A stretch of DNA of 46,963 nucleotides from Calothrix membranacea FACHB-236 (GTDB lineage Bacteria > Cyanobacteriota > Cyanobacteriia > Cyanobacteriales > Nostocaceae). The notes under the pieces were generated by a model that was not told where the DNA came from, ran no database searches, and saw nothing but the letters and a program-made list of their open reading frames with translations. The DNA lies in the NCBI RefSeq assembly GCF_014696315.1, contig NZ_JACJPX010000063.1, positions 1 through 46,963 of the forward strand, written 5' to 3'. The translations under genes were made by a program, and so were the position numbers. This document shows, piece after piece, positions 10,951-18,206 of the stretch (positions within the stretch are counted from its first letter, which is position 1; each line of letters starts with the position of its first letter).

Positions 10951-11020
10951 CCGCAAGGCGGAATTCAAAATTCGTCTTGAAAAGTTTGCTCAACGGGGGG
11001 AACCCCCGTACGCAACTTTT
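10951..11020. repeat. compound hairpin repeat (CCGCAAGGCGG ... CGGGGGGAACCCCCG)
   Basis: 10951-10961 is a small hairpin (CCGC aag GCGG). 10980-11020 is a larger one with outer arms AAAAGTTTGC / GCAACTTTT and an inner arm CGGGGG / CCCCCG. It is followed by repeated AAAATTCA units. Such modules recur in Nostocales intergenic DNA; function unknown. Confidence 0.6.
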
Positions 11021-11118
11021 CGCAAAATTCAAAATTCAAAATTAAGACAGAGTAAGTGTTTTGTTGATTTTGAATAGTCTGTTTAGAGATAATTTATAAA
11101 GTAAACCTTAAATTGTAG

Positions 11119-11221
11119 TGGCGTGGCAAGGCTAAAATGTTGCAATAAAAATGTTTGTAGTTGCGCTGTCTTTAGCTTTCCAAATATAAGTCTAATGCAC
11201 AACTTTAGTCTTGCCACGCCA
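11119..11221. mobile_element. MITE-like element, about 103 bp
   Basis: The terminal inverted repeats are about 26 bp: TGGCGTGGCAAGGCTAAA... at the left and its near-perfect inverse ending ...CTTGCCACGCCA at the right. GTAG flanks both ends and could be a 4-bp target duplication. The element has no coding capacity. Confidence 0.5.
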
Positions 11222-11329
11222 GTAGGATGCGTTAGCGATAGCGTAACGCATCGATAAAGATGGTGCGTTACGGCTAAATTTCATTGTCTCTAAGTCCGAA
11301 ATCCTTGCACAGCCGTAACACACCCTACT
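11221..11329. mobile_element. second MITE-like element, about 109 bp
   Basis: The ends are AGTAGGATGCGTTA and ...GTAACACACCCTACT, imperfect inverted repeats. Internal GGTGCGTTACGGCT is also inverted against AGCCGTAACACACC. GTAGGGTGTGTTACGGC-type palindromes are common in Nostocales genomes. No ORF. Confidence 0.5.
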
Positions 11330-11374
11330 TAATATTTACTTTATAAATAGCCTCTTATTTACGCCGTGCTGTAC

Positions 11375-11420
11375 TAGTAATCCACCACTTTGATATATGA
11401 ATCAAAGTGGTGGACTACTA
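11375..11420. repeat. hairpin with 20-bp stem
   Basis: TAGTA-TCCACCACTTTGAT pairs with ATCAAAGTGGTGGA-TACTA around a 6-nt loop with one mismatch. It lies about 50 bp beyond the end of the 72-aa gene. No T-run follows in either direction, so it is more likely a repeat element than a standard terminator, though it could block transcription. Confidence 0.6.
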
Positions 11421-11472
11421 TTTGCTAATATTTAGCCTTGCTGTTCAAGCTGGATTTGCATGATGCGGACAT

Positions 11473-11691
11473 TCAATCAATCATAATCTGTTGAGGCCCA
11501 CCTGCTTTACCATTATGAGCCTCAGTTCCAGTTGGTGTGTAAGTGGTTACGCCAGTTTGTTTATCTAGCCAGCTTTTCACAGGATCATCAGCAAGGTTAA
11601 GCCGAAACATACCTGAAAAGAATCCACCCAAAAATGAGACTGGGTGTTGGGTAAGTTCTTTGAAAATAGGTGACAATTCATCAATGAACAT
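11473..11691 (-). CDS. conserved small cyanobacterial protein, unknown function
   Basis: This is a 72-aa protein starting MFIDELSPIFKELTQHPVSFLGGFFSGMFRLNL. Then comes DPVKSWLDKQTG and a C-terminal Gly/Pro-rich tail (NGKAGGPQQIMID). The central FLGGFFSGMFRL stretch is hydrophobic and Gly-rich, possibly membrane-associating but short for a true transmembrane helix. I recall similar short proteins in filamentous cyanobacteria but no function. The ATG at 11691 is preceded by an AGGAGAC site (complement of gtctcct), which supports translation. It lies downstream of nrdJ on the same strand, separated by a hairpin. Confidence 0.75.
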   Translation of the reverse strand: MFIDELSPIFKELTQHPVSFLGGFFSGMFRLNLADDPVKSWLDKQTGVTTYTPTGTEAHNGKAGGPQQIMID

Positions 11692-11801
11692 TAAGAGTCT
11701 CCTGGTAATAGCCTTATAAAATTATTACTTCTTTATTGATCGTAACGTGGAAATCAAAATTAGATTATTAGTAGCGTAGTATACAAAAGTTCTGAATACG
11801 C

Positions 11802-11835
11802 AGATACCCGACTTAATTTAATAAGTCGGGTATCT
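11802..11835 (-). terminator. hairpin after nrdJ
   Basis: A perfect 14-bp stem AGATACCCGACTTA / TAAGTCGGGTATCT with a 6-nt loop lies 42 bp past the nrdJ stop codon. No T-tract follows leftwards, so termination efficiency is uncertain. Confidence 0.5.
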
Positions 11836-11876
11836 AGATTGTCACTTCATCCTCATTTGCTGTTTATTGTGCCTTA

Positions 11877-12947
11877 TCAGGTTGGCTGCTGTTCAGGGAA
11901 CATACATTTATCAGAGTCGCAACCAGAGGGGCCTGCTTCAGACAATTCACCTAAATCATAGCGACTTAGCACTGCACAGAAATCATCTGTGATTCGGCGT
12001 GCTTTCACTTCTTGACTCAATTGCTCGTAGGTGGCTTTATCTATTGGTTCAAAAGGTAAACGAGGGAAAGATTGTAAATCATCAAACCGAGCTAAAAGTG
12101 CTGCGGAAATATATCCTTCATCATTCTGAATAGCTTCGTAAATCCGCTGTCCCAAAGGCTCTACTTCATCAGAACGTAGCTCTAAAGTTGCAGAGGTATT
12201 ATGAGTGACATAATGCTTCTGAACTTGCATCACAAAATCTAATTGAGCTAAAGCAGAGAACTTAGAAACATCAATTTGATCGGCTCCTGGTAAATCCGCC
12301 CAAGGTACAGCAACAGGGATTTCTACTAACCATTCGCTGACACGAGGATCGAAGGGATCATTCAGCAAATTACCATGTTCATCTTTGTCAGATTGAGAAG
12401 GAATAACATTGTAACCATAGTCAATACAAGCTAAGGCTACAGGGTCATTTTTGCGGAAAGTAATCCGACGAATAAATCTTTGCGCTTTAGGAGGATGCCA
12501 GCCAGAACTAGCACCTGTTAATAGTGCTTTAGTACCACTAGGTTGAACAGTTGTACAGCGATTGGGACGTTTGAGATTATGGCGATCGCAATAATCCCAA
12601 ACTACCCGATGTACAATATCTCTCCAGTAACTCAGATATTTCTCTTCTTGACGCTTAAATGCCAATCCTTGAGCAGTAGCGGGTCTTCCTCCTTCCCACC
12701 ACCGCAACCAATCAACACCAAAAGCATGGACAAAGAAATCAAATAAACCTGTAAAAGAAACCCCAACAATTGGGTCTAATTCCCGGCTTTTTTGATAGCG
12801 AGGTTCGAGGAATTTATGGTTTAAAAGTGAAGCTACAGAAAGCGCCCCAGCAGTAAAAGCTTCCTCTTGTTCTTTGTAATTTTTTGGGTCAAGTTGATTT
12901 AGGTGAATTTCTGACAAATTACAGTGAAAGTTACTACCAATAATTTC
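11877..12947 (-). CDS. nrdJ: NrdJ exon 2: class II (B12-dependent) ribonucleotide reductase, C-terminal part
   Basis: This is the second exon of the nrdJ gene whose first exon is 13270-14496. After splicing it continues GGT|GAA, so the finger-loop motif NPCGE is restored and the whole protein is 765 aa (409 + 356). Exon 2 starts at the catalytic Glu of NPCGE and has NFHCNLSEIHLNQ (second active-site Cys of the redox pair), the barrel segment PSGTKALLTGASSGWHPPKAQRF, and the C-terminal shuttle cysteines CDSDKC near the end. Class II enzymes reduce ribonucleotides to deoxyribonucleotides with adenosylcobalamin and work with or without oxygen. Unspliced, this frame could begin at the ATG 12950-12948 formed by the last bases of the intron. 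Confidence 0.93.
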   Translation of the reverse strand, partial: EIIGSNFHCNLSEIHLNQLDPKNYKEQEEAFTAGALSVASLLNHKFLEPRYQKSRELDPIVGVSFTGLFDFFVHAFGVDWLRWWEGGRPATAQGLAFKRQEEKYLSYWRDIVHRVVWDYCDRHNLKRPNRCTTVQPSGTKALLTGASSGWHPPKAQRFIRRITFRKNDPVALACIDYGYNVIPSQSDKDEHGNLLNDPFDPRVSEWLVEIPVAVPWADLPGADQIDVSKFSALAQLDFVMQVQKHYVTHNTSATLELRSDEVEPLGQRIYEAIQNDEGYISAALLARFDDLQSFPRLPFEPIDKATYEQLSQEVKARRITDDFCAVLSRYDLGELSEAGPSGCDSDKCMFPEQQPT

Positions 12948-13269
12948 CATTTTTGTTAACCTAGAGGCTCTTTATCCTCTAGTTCTACGAGTTCTTTATT
13001 CCCCGTAGATCCGACTATATTTTCTACTAAATATCAGCAAGCCATATTTAGTAGCTGGAGACTCGTGGAGCCGTTCCCAAGAACGGGGGTAAAACCCAGA
13101 TTATATTCTTATGACAATTTAAAATTTATCGTTAATTTTGAATTGTCATTAGTTTCACTCTCTAGTCTGTACGGTGTCAAAGGTGGTTTAAATCCTCTGA
13201 TTACCTCGGTATTCCCAATCTCAGGGTTCACCGAATTTCCCCAGTGTTTAACGTGAGGCAAAATTACTT
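12948..13269 (-). ncRNA. group I self-splicing intron in nrdJ (322 nt, no ORF)
   Basis: The nrdJ frame stops at TAA 13266-13264 and resumes exactly after the intron. The 5' splice site follows U (13270) and the intron ends in G (12948), as group I introns require. P1 is visible: exon CGTGTGGT (13277-13270) pairs with GCCTCACG (13259-13252) with one mismatch and the obligatory U-G pair at the splice site. The R element CAGACTA (13169-13163) and S element AATATAGTC (13021-13013) supply the two P7 strands (GACTA/TAGTC). Just before S is a perfect 11-bp P8 hairpin (13024-13054), and a P9-like hairpin CTAGAGG/CCTCTAG lies at 12961-12982. No homing endonuclease is encoded, so it can splice but probably cannot home by itself. 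Confidence 0.92.
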
Positions 13270-14496
13270 ACCACACGGGTTTAAGCCAAACCTAGCTAAA
13301 CGATGCTCTAATTCCTCAGCATCCATTTCTGGATAACGTTTTTGCAACCAATCTTTTGCTGTTCCTTGTTCGTAAGCCTTCAAGAAATCAACTTTCAATG
13401 TTGATGTTGGTAGTAAATCAATGTTAGATCTAGCTACTGCTTCACCAGCCCATTGAATTGCACCTTCACCACTGTAATATTGTTTACGAACAGCATCAAT
13501 AGATTCTTCTAATTTTGGCTTGCGATGAAACACTCTGGTATGGTTTGCCATCCGGAGAGCATCACGCTCTGGATCTATTCTCCAGTTACCTTCTGCATCT
13601 TGCTGCCATAAATTATCTTTGGCTGTAGCACCTAGTTCATCGTCAGACCTGAACTGCCTCATGCCCGCGCTTCTTCGTATATTACCTGCAACAATTGTTA
13701 CAGCAGCCTGATCGATTAATAGACAGCACTCAACAGAATTTAATTGCCTTCCTAAAGCTTTATTGAGAATAGATGCACAATTTTGATAAAGGATGGGCAA
13801 TTTAACTGGATTAGCTACCCCTCCAAAGCCATTTAAGGTTTCTCCAGCTTGGCGAACATCACTAATATCAACAAATACTTGAACTTCCCCGTTAAATCTT
13901 TCATCTGTAGAAAGTTCTAATAAAGTTTGATAAGATTCCACCCAACCTTCACGGCTATCGCCAACGTGGATAGTAACTTGATTACCCTCTATGGAAATTT
14001 CCGTATACTCACGACGCTGTTCTTTAGGAGTAGCACCAATTTCACCCTGCACTGTTACATGGAGGCGATTGCTGATTGGGGGCAGTTGATTAATATATCT
14101 TGGTTCTATGATGGCTCCAGTACCACAGCCCATCATGGCTAAATCCATCATCAACCCAAAGGCTTTCCAGTCTTGGAGGTTGGTAGAAGTGCAATTGTAA
14201 GCCCCAGAAAAGTTTTTTGGCTTGGCTATCCAATCGGTGCCACCAACCCATAACCAGCGCCCACTAGGTAGGGCTTTCATATTACGCTGCATCTTGTCTA
14301 AAATGGCAGCTTCTTCACGGCTGAGTTTCCCCAGTTCCACTAAGCCCATTAGGGTGCGATCGCATACTTCATCCCAAGTTTCTCTCAAACCTGCCGGGCT
14401 GCGGCGGCTATAGGTTCTGAAAAATACAGGATTAGCTGCAGGGGCGGTTTCCGGAAACCTTGTACTCTGGCGTTTTCTTTCAAGCTCTCGAACCAT
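13270..14496 (-). CDS. nrdJ: NrdJ exon 1: class II ribonucleotide reductase, N-terminal part
   Basis: This 409-codon exon starts at ATG 14496 (MVRELERKRQ...) and ends ...RFGLNPCG, where the intron interrupts the finger loop directly after the radical-cysteine motif NPCG. Unspliced reading adds one Lys and stops at 13264. GAYNCTSTNLQDW carries the first Cys of the active-site redox pair, and LAMMGCGTGAIIEPRY is the conserved segment after it. The N-terminus lacks the long ATP-cone of class I enzymes. The first 21 codons and the upstream region are duplicated 623 bp to the right (copy at 15059-15300). The original arrangement was probably nrdJ divergent from the gene now at 15276, sharing one promoter region. 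Confidence 0.94.
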
Positions 14497-14677
14497 AAAT
14501 CCAGTCTTGTTGCGTGCTGACAGATTAAGACTATAGACTAAGTAGATTTAGGATGAAAGATTGCCAAAAGGGACAACTTGCGCTTGCTTTACAACTGTAC
14601 AAAGTGCAACATCCATCGATAATGTATAATATTATCTCCATTTTTAAGCGTAATGTCTCTTGCTCCTTGGCGAAGTG
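14436..14677. repeat. 242-bp direct repeat, copy 1 (nrdJ start and divergent promoter)
   Basis: This is identical in length to 15059-15300, with about 15 mismatches and no indels by eye (about 94% identity), offset exactly 623 bp. It contains the first 21 codons of nrdJ (minus strand), the whole divergent intergenic region, and the first 8 codons of the gene now intact at 15276 (plus strand). A TATAAT at 14625-14630 suits a rightward promoter. Confidence 0.93.
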
Positions 14678-14706
14678 TTAATCCAAGGTCGTCATTAGAA
14701 AAATAG
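14653..14706 (+). pseudogene. truncated duplicate start of the 15276 flavoprotein gene
   Basis: ATG 14653 opens MSLAPWRSVNPRSSLEK and stops at TAG 14704-14706. The first eight residues (MSLAPWRS) equal the start of the FMN-binding-fold gene at 15276; after the end of the repeat the sequence is unrelated. It is a 17-codon remnant of the duplication and is probably not functional. Confidence 0.75.
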
Positions 14707-14768
14707 CGGTTTTCGAGGGATCTCATTACACCGCTATATTGCTTGATTAAAGACAGACAAGATTAAAT

Positions 14769-15119
14769 TTAGCGATTTTTAAGCCCTGGACGTAGTTCCT
14801 TGAGATTACGTCTCAAATGCTCCAGTTTTTGGCTGGATTCTTTTGTAATTTGAGTACAAAATTTTGTTGAAATTAACCCTATTGCAGTTGTGACGCTTCC
14901 CTCGCTTGCTTTACCAGAAATTAGGAGAAATGCGCCAATTAAACTCATACCTACGGAAGCATAAATTGCTACTAAACTGAGGTTAAAAGTTTGTCGTGCT
15001 TGGCGTAGATGTTCTTTTGAGACATCCAATACTATTTTCAAGTATGGATCGTCATTGACTGCAGGGGCAGTTTCGGGAAACCTTGTACTCTGGCGTTTTC
15101 TTTCAAGCTCTCGAACCAT
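14769..15119 (-). CDS. chimeric protein: NrdJ N-terminus fused to CyanoTRADD-associated 2-TM domain
   Basis: This 116-aa ORF has residues 1-21 (MVRELERKRQSTRFPETAPA + V) from the duplicated start of nrdJ and residues 22-116 from inserted DNA. The second part shows a helix (YLKIVLDVSKEHLRQARQTF), two membrane segments at about 45-67 (NLSLVAIYASVGMSLIGAFL) and 72-87 (EGSVTTAIGLISTKFC), and a C-terminal basic helix (SQKLEHLRRNLKEL). That matches my memory of the cyanobacterial TRADD-N-associated transmembrane domain, found beside TRADD-N-like adaptors in proposed NTP-dependent conflict systems. Here the adaptor and effector parts are missing. The fusion is in frame and keeps the nrdJ leader, so it may be expressed like nrdJ, or it may be a relic. 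A weak hairpin (ATAGCGG/CCGCTAT) follows at 14703-14737. Confidence 0.75.
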   Translation of the reverse strand: MVRELERKRQSTRFPETAPAVNDDPYLKIVLDVSKEHLRQARQTFNLSLVAIYASVGMSLIGAFLLISGKASEGSVTTAIGLISTKFCTQITKESSQKLEHLRRNLKELRPGLKNR

Positions 15120-15300
15120 AAATCCAGTCTTGTTGCGTGCTGACAGATTAAGACTATAGACTAAGTAGATTTATGATGAAAGGTTGCCAAAAGGGACAAC
15201 TTGCACTTGCTTAACAACAGTACAAAATGCAACATCCAGCGATAATGTATAATATCCTTTCTGTTTTTCAGCGTAATGTCTCTTGCTCCTTGGCGAAGTG
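15059..15300. repeat. 242-bp direct repeat, copy 2
   Basis: This is the partner of 14436-14677. It provides the start of the chimeric ORF on the minus strand and the promoter and first codons of the intact gene at 15276 on the plus strand (TATAAT at 15248-15253, 22 bp before the ATG). The breakpoints are sharp: left at CTGCAGGGG, right at CGAAGTG. Confidence 0.93.
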
Positions 15301-15860
15301 CGATCGCTCTTGCCCTCAATGAAAATAGCAATCTCGCTTATGCCCGTTATTTACAACTGGCAACAGTGCGGGTAAATGGTCTTCCAGCCAATCGAACTTT
15401 GGTATTTCGAGGCTTTTTAGAAAATACTAATCAGTTCAAATTTATTACTGATTCCCGTACTGAAAAAATCGAGCAGATACAGCAACAACCTTGGGCAGAA
15501 GCCTGCTGGTATTTCCCCAATACACGAGAGCAATTTCGTATTACTGGCACCTTAAACTTGGTAAGTGATAATGAGCAACACGATTTAGCATCAGCACGCA
15601 TTACCACCTGGCAAGAATTAAGTGATGCAGCACGGTTACAATTTGCTTGGCCTAGTTCTGGTCAACCGAGAAATAAAGATGAACAAGCAGCTTTTTCGCC
15701 ACCACAACCAGATTCCAGCCAGCCATTGCCAAATTTTTGCTTATTGCTACTAGAACCTGTTCAGGTAGATCATCTAGTGTTACGTGGAGAACCACAAAAT
15801 CGCTGGATATACTACCACGATGAACAGAATGGGTGGACGAGTCAAGAAATTAATCCTTGA
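15276..15860 (+). CDS. pyridoxamine 5'-phosphate oxidase-family FMN-binding protein
   Basis: This 194-aa protein has the split-barrel pattern of the PNPOx-like flavoproteins (the Pyridox_oxase_2/Alr4036-like branch). Seen are ARYLQLATVRVNGLPANRTLVFRGF near residues 24-48, FKFITDSRTEKIEQI near 53-67, AEACWYFPNTREQFRITG near 74-91, and a C-terminal domain (PNFCLLLLEPVQVDHLVLRGEPQNRWIYYHD). In this branch the substrate is generally unproven; vitamin B6 oxidation is possible, but I would not assign pdxH. The ATG at 15276 lies at the right edge of the 242-bp repeat and so has a duplicated, truncated relative at 14653. Confidence 0.88.
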   Translation: MSLAPWRSAIALALNENSNLAYARYLQLATVRVNGLPANRTLVFRGFLENTNQFKFITDSRTEKIEQIQQQPWAEACWYFPNTREQFRITGTLNLVSDNEQHDLASARITTWQELSDAARLQFAWPSSGQPRNKDEQAAFSPPQPDSSQPLPNFCLLLLEPVQVDHLVLRGEPQNRWIYYHDEQNGWTSQEINP

Positions 15861-15924
15861 TAGGGATTAGGGATTGGGTAATAGGTAATTGGTAATGGGG
15901 AAATAACCAAACACCAAACACTGG

Positions 15925-16689
15925 TTAGATTCCTGCACCATCTAAGAACTGCTGGATGGCTTTATCTCTGAGATTACACCAAGCGGTTTCTTTGAGGTGT
16001 TCAGCTTCATTAACAGCTAAATGACCTGCCAAAACAGGGGTTTTCTCAGCAGACTGGTTACGCTGAAGAACTTGTATTTGTTCTTCCAATGCTTCAATTC
16101 GGTCTACTAAAGCACGAATTACTTCAGCTTCTGAGTCTGGTAAGTTGTTGTGTTCTAGAGGCGCAACCCGAACTCCAGAACGATAGATAATGCGGCCAGG
16201 TATGCCAACAACAGTGCAATCAGAAGGTACATCACGTAGTACTACTGAACCTGCACCAATGCGGACATTATTACCAACTTGAATATTTCCTAGTACTTTT
16301 GCACCTGCGCCGACTACAACGTTTTCACCCAAAGTTGGGTGGCGTTTACCGCTTTCTTTACCAGTACCACCAAGGGTGACACCTTGATAAATTAGCGCAT
16401 AGTCTCCCACGATCGCAGTTTCGCCAATTACTACACCCATACCGTGGTCAATAAACACGCCATGTCCAATGGTTGCGCCTGGGTGAATTTCAACCCCCGT
16501 CAAAAACCGAGCCAAGTGAGATATCAGCCGGGGGATAAAGGGAATACCTATAATATGCAGCCAGTGAGCCAGTCGATAAAATAGCAAAGCTTGCAAACCG
16601 GGGTAACAGAATAAAACTTCCAACCAGTTGCGAGCAGCAGGGTCACGTTCAAAGATGATGCTAAAGTCGGCACGCATTGTAGATAGCAC
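15925..16689 (-). CDS. cysE: serine O-acetyltransferase
   Basis: This enzyme makes O-acetylserine from serine and acetyl-CoA, the first committed step of cysteine synthesis. It is 254 aa with an N-terminal helical domain ([32 protein letters not shown]) and a left-handed beta-helix of hexapeptide repeats. The helix contains the catalytic segment [17 protein letters not shown] and [18 protein letters not shown]. The C-terminal tail (from about 190) is a coiled, variable extension. I use GTG 16689 (MLSTMRADF) because cyanobacterial relatives begin that way and GAGGG lies 9 nt upstream; ATG 16677 is the alternative. Confidence 0.95.
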
Positions 16690-16849
16690 GAGATAGTACC
16701 CTCGGAAAGCAAAACGAGCTACTTTCCCATATTATCCTTCTCGGTGTAACTCGTAACAAATTGGGTGGGAGTCAAGAGTCAAAGGTCAAACGGTCAAGGG
16801 TTATTTCTTCCTTGCCTTCCCAGTCACCAGTCACCAATCCCCAATCCTT

Positions 16850-17341
16850 CTACGGCTGCTGCACTGTGAGAGTGTAGTTATGCTTGTCTCCAGAGTTAAA
16901 GGTACCTATCCAAATGCGATAGGTTCCGCTTTTGAAGTCGCGATCGTCGATGCTGGCATCTTTACTTTTACCAGTATCATCGCCACAGCGAATTGTTGAA
17001 TCGTCTGGGCCTTGGATGAGCATAGTGGTGTCGTAACCGCCACTATTTACTAGGAATTTCAGGCTAGCAAAGTCTTTCTCTAAGGTAATGATGTGATCTG
17101 GCTGGGGATCTGCAAAACCAATACAGGCTTTTTTATCGCGATCGCGGTTACTAATGGCAGACAGTGAGTACGATCCACCTGTGTATCCTTCAGCGACTCC
17201 TTGCGCTGGGTTAAAACCTGCTGATAGCTTCAGTGTGCCAAAGTTTGCTGTCTGTGCTATTACGGGTTGCGCCATGATAGCTGTACCTAGAGCCAAAAGC
17301 CAGCCTAATTGTGATTTAATCCGGAGGCGAAAATATTTCAT
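16850..17341 (-). CDS. secreted protein, unknown function
   Basis: This 163-aa protein has a Sec signal peptide: basic start (MKYFRLRIKSQ), hydrophobic core (LGWLLALGTAIMA) and a cleavage site after PVIAQ, near residue 30. The mature part, about 130 aa, contains GYTGGSYSLSAISNRDRDKKACIGFADPQPDH, DTTMLIQGPDDSTIRCGDD and a final YRIWIGTFNSGDKHNYTLTV. This is a beta-sandwich-like pattern similar to bacterial pre-peptidase C-terminal-type domains, where the GxYxIWxG motif is common. Two Cys residues could form a disulphide. ATG 17341 has GGAGGA five bases upstream. Periplasmic or extracellular location is inferred. Confidence 0.82.
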   Translation of the reverse strand: MKYFRLRIKSQLGWLLALGTAIMAQPVIAQTANFGTLKLSAGFNPAQGVAEGYTGGSYSLSAISNRDRDKKACIGFADPQPDHIITLEKDFASLKFLVNSGGYDTTMLIQGPDDSTIRCGDDTGKSKDASIDDRDFKSGTYRIWIGTFNSGDKHNYTLTVQQP

Positions 17342-17894
17342 AGTAGTCCTCCACCAAGCAATTTTATAAGTAACTATATATACTTATTGTAATCATTTTT
17401 TGGGAATATTTCCTGAATTGTGACACATTGAAATCTGCCACAATTCATGGCTAAAAAAACAAAAAAAGTGTGTTTTTAAGATAAATTTTATTGCGATTTT
17501 TAATAAAATTTTAAAATTACTTTTTTCTTATATTTAAATTTTCAATATAGTCACAGTTACTAAATGTTTTATTTTAGTTAAGACAAGATTATATAAACTT
17601 TTTGTGTGGTTTCTGAAAAGTTTATACAACTGTTAATATGCGGCTAATTATGGGGCAATACGGTTGAGATAAGACTTTTTCTCTCTCTGTATTTCTGCTC
17701 CCTCTGGCTACCTTAGCGTATAAATTTCTTTAAAATTAACACTATGGAATTGAGGGGTCAGAACCCTCATTAAACCAGCACTATTTTTGTAGAAGTTGAA
17801 GATATAAATTAAGAGAATGCATGAGACTAAGCTCATGCATCCTACAAACAAAAAATTGGGATAATTTGTAACTTTCGTCTCTAGTCTTAGCCTT
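17342..17894. other. AT-rich intergenic region
   Basis: These 553 bases contain the promoter region of the secreted protein (right side of its start) and long A/T runs near 17450-17560. No ORF of note. The only structured element seen is the hairpin at 17817-17840. Confidence 0.5.
17817..17840 (-). terminator. hairpin after grxC
   Basis: A perfect 9-bp stem ATGCATGAG / CTCATGCAT with a 6-nt loop lies 55 bp past the grxC stop. Leftwards it runs into a moderately T-rich sequence. It may be a terminator or a small palindromic repeat. Confidence 0.4.
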
Positions 17895-18206
17895 TTAAAC
17901 AGGTTCCGCTAACAGGGGATCAAGTTGACCTTTTGTATCCAAATCATAAATGTCATCACAACCACCAATATGCTGATTGTTAATAAAAATTTGTGGTACT
18001 GTGCGGCGACTATTAGCACGTTCTGCCATTTTAGTTCTGGCAGCTTCGTCACCATCGATTTTGTATTCTTGGAATTGCACACCTTTCCACCACAGCAGCA
18101 TTTTAGCGCGGATGCAATAAGGACAAGTTTGCCAAGTATAAATTTCGACATTGGCTTTAACTCGTTCTGGGTGTCGATTTAAAAGGGGATTAAGAAAGTC
18201 CAGCAT
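17895..18206 (-). CDS. grxC: glutaredoxin 3
   Basis: This 103-aa glutaredoxin has the dithiol active site CPYC at residues 28-31, the cis-Pro motif TVPQIFIN and the glutathione-binding GGCDDIYDL. It reduces protein disulphides and glutathione mixed disulphides in the cytosol using glutathione. The N-terminus (MLDFLNPLLNRHPERVK) is about 15 residues longer than the minimal fold, as is common in cyanobacteria. It is followed leftwards by a hairpin and preceded by the DUF981 gene on the same strand at a 125-bp distance, so they are not obviously one operon. Confidence 0.95.
   Translation of the reverse strand: MLDFLNPLLNRHPERVKANVEIYTWQTCPYCIRAKMLLWWKGVQFQEYKIDGDEAARTKMAERANSRRTVPQIFINNQHIGGCDDIYDLDTKGQLDPLLAEPV

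What the first reader, a model, noticed from the sequence alone, without database searches (positions are those of the whole stretch)
14436..15300. 242-bp direct repeats flank an insert and transplant the nrdJ promoter and N-terminus onto a foreign gene
14436-14677 and 15059-15300 are about 94% identical without indels. Each spans the nrdJ start, the divergent promoter region and the start of the flavoprotein gene. Between them lie 381 bp of unrelated DNA. The result is an intact ORF that starts with 21 NrdJ residues and continues as a two-transmembrane protein. The arrangement looks like integration of a circle, or a duplicative recombination, that captured a promoter and start. The roughly 6% divergence means it is not recent or is not homogenised.
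Basis: partly seen in the sequence, partly recalled or inferred. Interest (0 to 1): 0.72.

Follow-up and report, generated by a model that had tools for sequence, protein, structure and literature searches.

The report
Small genes captured behind nrdJ start
In this Nostoc-type cyanobacterium a small membrane-protein gene sits behind a second copy of the promoter and first codons of the DNA-precursor gene nrdJ, and a number of related cyanobacteria show the same arrangement with other small conflict-type genes, so the start of nrdJ looks like a recurrent docking place for such genes.

Summary
14436-14677 and 15059-15300 match at 227 of 242 bases with sharp edges and flank 381 bp. The result is an intact 116-aa ORF (14769-15119, minus strand): 20 NrdJ codons, then a CyanoTRADDas_TM protein.

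It is not a one-off. I found 26 extra copies of the nrdJ promoter and start in 23 Nostocales genomes: 20 beside nrdJ, six on other contigs. Several share one origin. Ends vary; a TATAGT box is kept in 24 of 26. Cargo recurs: CyanoTRADDas_TM, a single-TM family, a coiled coil, a PBECR-like pair; nine copies run in frame into one. A control start (glpX) shows no second copy in 208 genomes; hemA has second hits in 14 genomes, read as paralogues.

Tolypothrix sp. FACHB-123 has the same junction. There cargo dS is 0.18 against 0.36-0.69 for neighbours, and each genome's two repeats resemble each other most. Best reading: promoter/start capture by conflict-type genes, spread and lost by homologous recombination through the repeated arms. 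Expression and function are inferred. A parA-like gene of the own genome shows a similar start duplication, so nrdJ is not unique.

The parts
14436..14677 (-). repeat copy A: nrdJ-proximal module (nrdJ codons 1-20, promoter region, first 8 flavoprotein codons); serves nrdJ
   Evidence: 93.8% to copy B over 242 bp, no gaps
14678..15058 (-). 381-bp insert with the cargo
   Evidence: absent from four same-genus genomes with one module; present with the same junction in Tolypothrix sp. FACHB-123
15059..15300 (-). repeat copy B: flavoprotein-proximal module; gives promoter region, start and 20 codons to the cargo ORF and carries the intact flavoprotein start
14769..15119 (-). chimeric ORF, 116 aa: NrdJ residues 1-20 fused to a CyanoTRADDas_TM protein
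   Evidence: PF20712 54.8 bits, residues 36-98; cargo dN/dS 0.17-0.20 against FACHB-123; low-confidence AlphaFold2 model, residues 1-24 without structure apart from a 3-residue turn, helices 25-67 and 75-112, mean pLDDT 60.8
13264..14496 (-). nrdJ (class II ribonucleotide reductase), first exon
   Evidence: PF17975 and PF21995
11877..12950 (-). nrdJ second exon (ORF start is mechanical)
   Evidence: continues the NrdJ sequence that is uninterrupted in a relative, L029; by itself it has no Pfam match
15153..15158 (-). TATAGT, -10-like box of copy B, 39 bp before the start codon
   Evidence: box in 126 of 133 nrdJ upstream regions and 24 of 26 extra copies
14530..14535 (-). TATAGT, -10-like box of copy A (nrdJ)
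15276..15860 (+). divergent flavoprotein gene (pyridoxamine 5'-phosphate oxidase family)
   Evidence: PF12766 107.1 bits
14653..14706 (+). cut-off flavoprotein start left in copy A (MSLAPWRSVNPRSSLEK, stop)
   Evidence: read directly

Best explanation
The insert is a conflict-type cassette that has captured the promoter, ribosome-binding region and start codon of nrdJ. Shown: a segment spanning the nrdJ promoter and first codons is duplicated; one copy stays with nrdJ and the other runs in frame into a CyanoTRADDas_TM gene; the same kind of duplication, with other junctions and recurring cargo families, is found in 23 genomes. Shown for one pair of genomes: the cargo is under purifying selection, is less diverged than its neighbours, and the two arms of each genome resemble each other. 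Inferred: the cassette moves between strains and is lost without a scar by homologous recombination through the arms, with no recombinase of its own, and nrdJ keeps working because it retains one complete promoter and start. Inferred: the gain for the cargo is transcription and translation start under nrdJ control, so that a small membrane effector is made together with ribonucleotide reductase. The leader peptide is probably incidental, since its length varies from about 6 to about 130 residues between cases.
For: Recurrence: two nrdJ starts in 4 of 8 same-genus genomes; 26 copies in 23 genomes, 24 of them reaching at least 74 bp upstream and all at least 18 bp downstream of the start, with varying ends. 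TATAGT in 24 of 26 copies as in 126 of 133 nrdJ genes. Nine of 26 copies run in frame into a recognised cargo class. Of 31 filled nrdJ-flavoprotein intervals 12 hold a copy and 18 hold one of four cargo classes. Six of 16 family-wide hits of the single-TM cargo lie in this interval; three of the six (G084, G133, G151) are the cases from which I defined the family. The fourth-best hit of the window cargo, after three genomes of genus g11, lies behind an nrdJ leader at the same locus of another genus, G132, 65% identity. Control: glpX start pattern never twice in 208 genomes. Mobility: FACHB-123 has the same junction; cargo dS 0.18 against nrdJ 0.36, flavoprotein 0.64, cysE 0.69 (Fisher on rounded counts about 1e-4 and below for flavoprotein 1-2e-4 and cysE 1-5e-5, but only 0.04-0.06 for nrdJ). 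G003 is empty. Arms: within-genome 93.8/96.3%, between-genome 88-89%. nrdJ-linked CyanoTRADDas_TM fall in two parts of the tree.
Against: No expression data. Several copies are degenerate (leader stops after 26-57 residues) and could be decaying by-products. Two of 26 copies lack the box. The 26 copies are not 26 events: window/FACHB-123 share junctions, G108/G141 share the upstream junction, G061/G092 and G177/G214 share ectopic places. The arm pattern rests on one genome pair; ectopic copies show no clear homogenisation. Eight filled intervals hold cargo without a recognised copy, so a copy is not required. That none of 52 empty intervals holds a copy is no evidence: empty means under 450 bp and the smallest interval with a copy is 654 bp. 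The hemA control has second hits in 14 genomes; I read them as paralogues from their differing codons and distance but did not verify this. nrdJ is not unique: a parA-like gene of the own genome also has its start region duplicated, next to another CyanoTRADDas_TM gene.
Confidence: 0.57

Rival explanations
1. A site-specific integrative element attaches in the 5' end of nrdJ and carries a replacement promoter and start; the inserts are its remnants.
For: Displaced gene start at the far end of the insert, several copies in a row in G132 and G072, hotspot behaviour.
Against: Copy ends differ (from -5 to -240 upstream, +18 to +401 downstream; BLAST ends); the 381-bp window insert has room only for the cargo ORF; I saw no integrase among the insert ORFs I read (cut output; 27, 35), but only five proteins from such intervals or neighbours were scanned, so absence elsewhere is not tested.
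Confidence: 0.13
2. Neutral by-product: local duplications of gene starts arise often in these genomes and carry along whatever lies near; the small ORFs are junk fusions on the way to loss.
For: Several copies are broken; a parA-like gene shows a similar duplication; DUF2887 and Uma2 genes (nuclease-type by my recall) lie in some of these intervals and might provoke rearrangement.
Against: dN/dS 0.17-0.20 for the window cargo, the same cargo families again and again, box kept in 24 of 26 copies, no second glpX start in 208 genomes.
Confidence: 0.22
3. One ancient nrdJ-leader::CyanoTRADDas_TM gene inherited vertically, its leader kept similar to nrdJ by gene conversion, and lost many times.
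For: Same locus and related cargo in the window genus and in G132; within-genome similarity of arms.
Against: nrdJ-linked CyanoTRADDas_TM fall in two parts of the tree, with modest supports; junctions differ; other cargo classes occupy the same place.
Confidence: 0.08

Closest known systems
CyanoTRADDas_TM (PF20712), named for cyanobacterial TRADD-N conflict systems
   Same: The cargo domain is a full-length member by profile (54.8 bits, positions 1-67 of 68).
   Different: Here it stands behind an nrdJ-derived start; the own genome's seven other members start on their own codons. Two eLife papers on TRADD-N systems (PMC8195603, PMC7159879; seen only as passages found by term) have no occurrence of nrdJ or ribonucleotide reductase in the main text, and PMC7159879 none of 'promoter'.
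Integrative elements that enter the end of a housekeeping gene and restore it with their own copy (recalled)
   Same: Direct repeats of a gene end flank the insert and the gene stays intact.
   Different: Variable ends, no integrase in the window insert, repeats of 110-562 bp.
Polymorphic-toxin cassettes (Rhs, CDI, MafB) that swap tips through conserved upstream sequence (recalled)
   Same: Conflict-type cargo behind a conserved homologous 5' segment; a PBECR-like protein plus partner occurs as cargo.
   Different: The conserved segment is the start of a metabolic gene, not of a secreted toxin carrier.
Promoter capture known from experimental evolution (e.g. PMC4395868, search listing only)
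   Same: A gene gains a promoter by rearrangement.
   Different: Here recurrent in nature at one gene with recurring cargo families.

Membership tests
CyanoTRADDas_TM (PF20712) | profile match above the curated cut-off over the whole domain | tested here: met
   54.8 bits against 24.3, profile 1-67 of 68
CyanoTRADDas_TM (PF20712) | two transmembrane helices | tested here: inconclusive
   low-confidence model with helices 25-67 and 75-112, mean pLDDT 60.8
CyanoTRADDas_TM (PF20712) | linkage to a TRADD-N protein | not tested
   no TRADD-N search was made; the neighbours of the cargo are nrdJ and the flavoprotein gene
Site-specific integrative element at a gene end | fixed attachment core shared by all insertions | tested here: not met
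   ends vary among 26 copies; no junction-core search beyond this was made
Site-specific integrative element at a gene end | integrase gene in the insert | tested here: inconclusive
   not met for the 381-bp window insert; other inserts were read as ORFs and mostly not scanned by profile
Homology-driven cassette (Rhs/CDI-like exchange) | different cargo behind one conserved homologous 5' segment in related strains | tested here: met
   window, G133 and G108/G141 in one genus; four cargo classes in the family
Homology-driven cassette (Rhs/CDI-like exchange) | cargo exchanged between lineages while arms follow the host | tested here: met
   one genome pair only; ectopic copies inconclusive
Promoter/start capture with expression of the fusion | transcript and protein from the captured start | not testable with these tools
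   no expression data

The most novel reading that the evidence does not exclude
The 5' end of nrdJ in Nostocales is a recombinase-free docking site: conflict cassettes use a duplicated promoter-and-start of an essential DNA-precursor gene as homology arms, so they can enter any relative, are expressed in step with ribonucleotide reductase (and so with dNTP stress or phage replication), and can leave without a scar; other genes such as parA may serve in the same way.
Probability: 0.3. Interest if true: 0.85.

Novelty: new variant of a known kind. Interest (0 to 1): 0.65.

Why it matters
It would show how small defence or self-killing genes can gain expression without a promoter or a recombinase of their own: by copying the start of an essential gene. 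It would tie conflict effectors of multicellular cyanobacteria to control by the nucleotide-supply gene, gives a simple signature (a second copy of a housekeeping promoter plus start) with which to look for such cassettes elsewhere, and makes the unnamed single-TM and coiled-coil cargo families testable effector candidates.

Tried and rejected
Assembly artefact: unlikely (independent assembly). Leader as an ancestral part of CyanoTRADDas_TM: rejected. Cassette with its nrdJ leader on plasmids: not seen; eight plasmid records match at under 45% identity, the aligned part starting at query residue 10 or later. nrdJ leader on phages: eight records, annotated as phage ribonucleotide reductase except S-CBP42 (two records), which has no feature there. 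Known RNA element at the promoter: no match at gathering threshold in 11000-18000. Shared -35 box: TTTCAT at suitable spacing in only 9 of 133. Concerted evolution of ectopic copies: not supported.

Other CyanoTRADDas_TM genes with a duplicated gene start: of seven own-genome loci scanned for direct repeats, four had none of 35 bp or more, L032 and L035 have short-period repeats, and L033 has, besides such repeats, a duplication of about 180 bp that includes the start of a parA-like gene just downstream of the CyanoTRADDas_TM gene. So a similar event exists away from nrdJ; it is not an in-frame capture by CyanoTRADDas_TM.

Counts and what was dropped. Pattern search for the NrdJ start: 22 of 217 genomes have two or more hits; I count 15 as true second starts. 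Dropped: G143, G111, G011, G012 and G002 by their bases (not fetched for this), G071 (fetched, no nrdJ match) and G086 (38% contamination). G133's second start has more mismatches and appears only. Dropped from the 26 copies: L129, L244, L246 (20-bp inverted), L242 (89 bp, does not reach the start), L285, L295 (short, upstream only), and an inverted protein-level or DNA match in L067 and L070. The odds computed rest on a rough hit count and on queries taken from nrdJ loci; I do not use them. No paper on a hotspot or start duplication at nrdJ was found in the listings; only open-licence papers are held.

Full report
Check of the observation. The segments 14436-14677 and 15059-15300 match at 227 of 242 bases without gaps, and similarity ends abruptly on both sides. 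They contain the first 20 codons of nrdJ, the divergent promoter region and the first eight codons of the flavoprotein gene. The 381 bp between them, read on the minus strand from the nrdJ start of the distal copy, give a 116-aa ORF whose residues 36-98 match PF20712 CyanoTRADDas_TM with 54.8 bits. No other ATG stands before residue 58 of that ORF (read; TTG codons at residues 27 and 31 cannot be excluded as starts), so the captured start is needed for the intact product. The segment occurs once in the 8.8-Mb genome.

Empty sites and other inserts in the genus. The window's genus holds eight genomes in the collection; four have one nrdJ start and four have two. The one-copy genomes (G003, G056, G088, G122) show nrdJ, one module and the flavoprotein gene side by side. 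The other two-copy genomes have other inserts: a 171-aa ORF with one hydrophobic stretch in G133, and coiled-coil-like ORFs with similar tails in G108 and G141, whose inserts also share the upstream junction and so probably one origin. The coiled-coil label rests on reading and on sub-threshold Pfam matches.

Extent in the family. A degenerate pattern for the first ten NrdJ residues matched 164 of 217 family genomes (the list of places was cut by the tool). I fetched 133 genuine nrdJ loci and six ectopic copies (the 40 regions were chosen because of extra copies, kinship or adjacency) and searched each with its own nrdJ start. Eighty named loci, many of the same genomes, were searched as well. 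With the window this gave 26 extra copies in 23 genomes: 20 beside nrdJ, six on other contigs (how far away the latter lie is unknown in drafts). Identity to the own nrdJ start is 74-97%, aligned length 110-562 bp. Twenty-four of 26 reach at least 74 bp upstream and all reach at least 18 bp downstream of the start codon; the exceptions are one copy in G132 (-5) and one in G072 (-47). G132 has three extra copies, G072 two. The number of independent events is smaller than 26 and not determined: window/FACHB-123, G108/G141, G061/G092 and G177/G214 each share a place or junction.

What the copies keep. A TATAGT box lies 34-49 bp before the start in 24 of 26 copies and in 126 of 133 nrdJ upstream regions; the two copies without it are in G132. 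Nine of 26 copies run in frame into a recognised cargo: CyanoTRADDas_TM (window, FACHB-123, G177), the single-TM family (G133, G084, G151) and coiled coil (G108, G141, G054). In others the leader stops after 26-125 residues and a cargo ORF follows, e.g. CyanoTRADDas_TM in G132 and G010, or a PBECR-like protein and a partner in G157 and G055; such pairs are also by the copies of G053 and G041. The PBECR call rests on sub-threshold Pfam matches (E 0.0019 and 0.0036). The ORFs behind the copies of G061 and G092 match my CyanoTRADDas_TM profile weakly (E 1.6e-4 and 3e-5) and Pfam did not confirm them.

Association and controls. Of 133 nrdJ loci 83 have the flavoprotein gene in range: 52 intervals are under 450 bp and 31 are filled. 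Of the 31, 12 hold a start copy and 18 hold one of the four cargo classes; 10 of the 12 with a copy hold such cargo. Two more copies, both with the PBECR-like pair, are among the 50 loci without the flavoprotein gene. That no empty interval holds a copy is true by construction, since a copy with cargo makes the interval longer than 450 bp. The single-TM family has one hit in each of 16 of 208 genomes; six of the 16 lie in the nrdJ-flavoprotein interval, three of which served to define the family; several of the rest are beside ATPase-type genes. Among the listed CyanoTRADDas_TM hits five lie by an nrdJ start copy, the window included. Controls: the glpX start pattern is not found twice in any of 208 genomes. 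The hemA start pattern has two or more hits in 14 of 208 genomes; those listed differ in codons and lie on other contigs or far away, and I take them as paralogues without having checked. The nrdJ pattern raw count is 22 of 217, of which I accept 15. Against nrdJ being special, the own genome has a parA-like gene whose start region is duplicated (about 180 bp, interrupted by one small indel) some 520 bp upstream, right behind a CyanoTRADDas_TM gene (the parA label is my reading).

History of the window insert. Tolypothrix sp. FACHB-123 has the same insert with the same junctions at both ends; its chimeric ORF is 115 aa. Cargo: dS 0.18, dN 0.036; neighbours of the same pair: nrdJ dS 0.36, flavoprotein 0.64, cysE 0.69. 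On rounded counts the difference is clear for flavoprotein and cysE (Fisher 1e-5 to 2e-4) and marginal for nrdJ (0.04-0.06). So the cargo is probably younger in common ancestry than its surroundings, as expected from transfer between lineages. dN/dS of 0.17-0.20 points to purifying selection. The two repeats of each genome match at 93.8 and 96.3%, while copies match at 88-89% between genomes: the arms follow the host, by gene conversion or by crossovers within the arms. The closest relative G003 (cysE and flavoprotein dS below 0.09) is empty, so the window lineage gained the cassette recently or G003 lost it; I cannot tell which. For ectopic copies in two genome pairs no such arm pattern is seen. 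In a tree of 41 rows the nrdJ-linked CyanoTRADDas_TM fall in two parts, window/FACHB-123/G132 and G010/G177/G214, with modest supports.

Mechanism. The most likely reading is start capture: the cassette is cargo plus a copy of the nrdJ promoter and start, nrdJ keeps the other copy, and the two arms let the cassette enter and leave by ordinary homologous recombination. Leaders range from about 6 codons (G084, G151) to about 130 (G072), so the peptide is unlikely to matter; the low-confidence AlphaFold2 model leaves residues 1-24 largely without structure. The supposed gain is expression in step with ribonucleotide reductase. How the first junctions arise is open; DUF2887 genes (three loci, each with a copy) and Uma2 genes lie in some filled intervals, which is at most a lead. 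A site-specific element is less likely given variable ends and no room for an integrase in the window insert.

Known and new. The cargo domain is known. Recurrent capture of the nrdJ start by conflict-type genes was not found in the searched papers (listings; open-licence full text only; the TRADD-N papers were seen as passages found by term). I class it as a new variant of known kinds, namely homology-driven cassettes and integration hotspots at a housekeeping gene.

Noticed in passing
window 12996-13299 (minus): nrdJ is split by a group I intron-like stretch (RF00028, 28.9 bits, E 1.8e-5, below the gathering score of 50). In Calothrix brevissima NIES-22 an intein-like insertion sits at about the same point of NrdJ (after LNPC).
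   Followed up: partly
window 15276-15860: The flavoprotein allele of the window and G003 is strongly diverged from that of G088, G122 and G133 (dS 0.63-0.67) while cysE next door is at 0.22-0.26, so this stretch has probably been replaced by recombination.
   Followed up: partly
L033 1780-1958 and 2298-2477 (own genome, contig C160): The start region of a parA-like gene is duplicated just downstream of a CyanoTRADDas_TM gene; the first copy opens a short ORF.
   Followed up: partly
L311 2470-3141 and L126 about 4827: NrdJ of G114 starts with an extra stretch (DSLRDDVGVIRQ) that in G053 is found in the extra copy, suggesting exchange between copy and gene.
   Followed up: no
L302-L316: A rare single-TM protein family (PILxYGGVAVAVIIAM...): members tested had no NCBIfam match and no Pfam match better than E 0.15; it lies at nrdJ or beside ATPase-type genes.
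   Followed up: partly
L052, L053, L057; L167, L184 and others: DUF2887 genes (three loci, all with start copies) and close relatives of one Uma2 gene (11 loci, plus two weak matches) lie upstream of nrdJ.
   Followed up: partly
L307 521-1267 and 1492-1698: In G214 the PBECR-like pair and the single-TM gene, both nrdJ cargo elsewhere, are neighbours at another place.
   Followed up: no
L052 3100-8100: G132 has four nrdJ starts in a row with CyanoTRADDas_TM, a TPR-like, a DUF2887 and a PBECR-like gene between them.
   Followed up: partly
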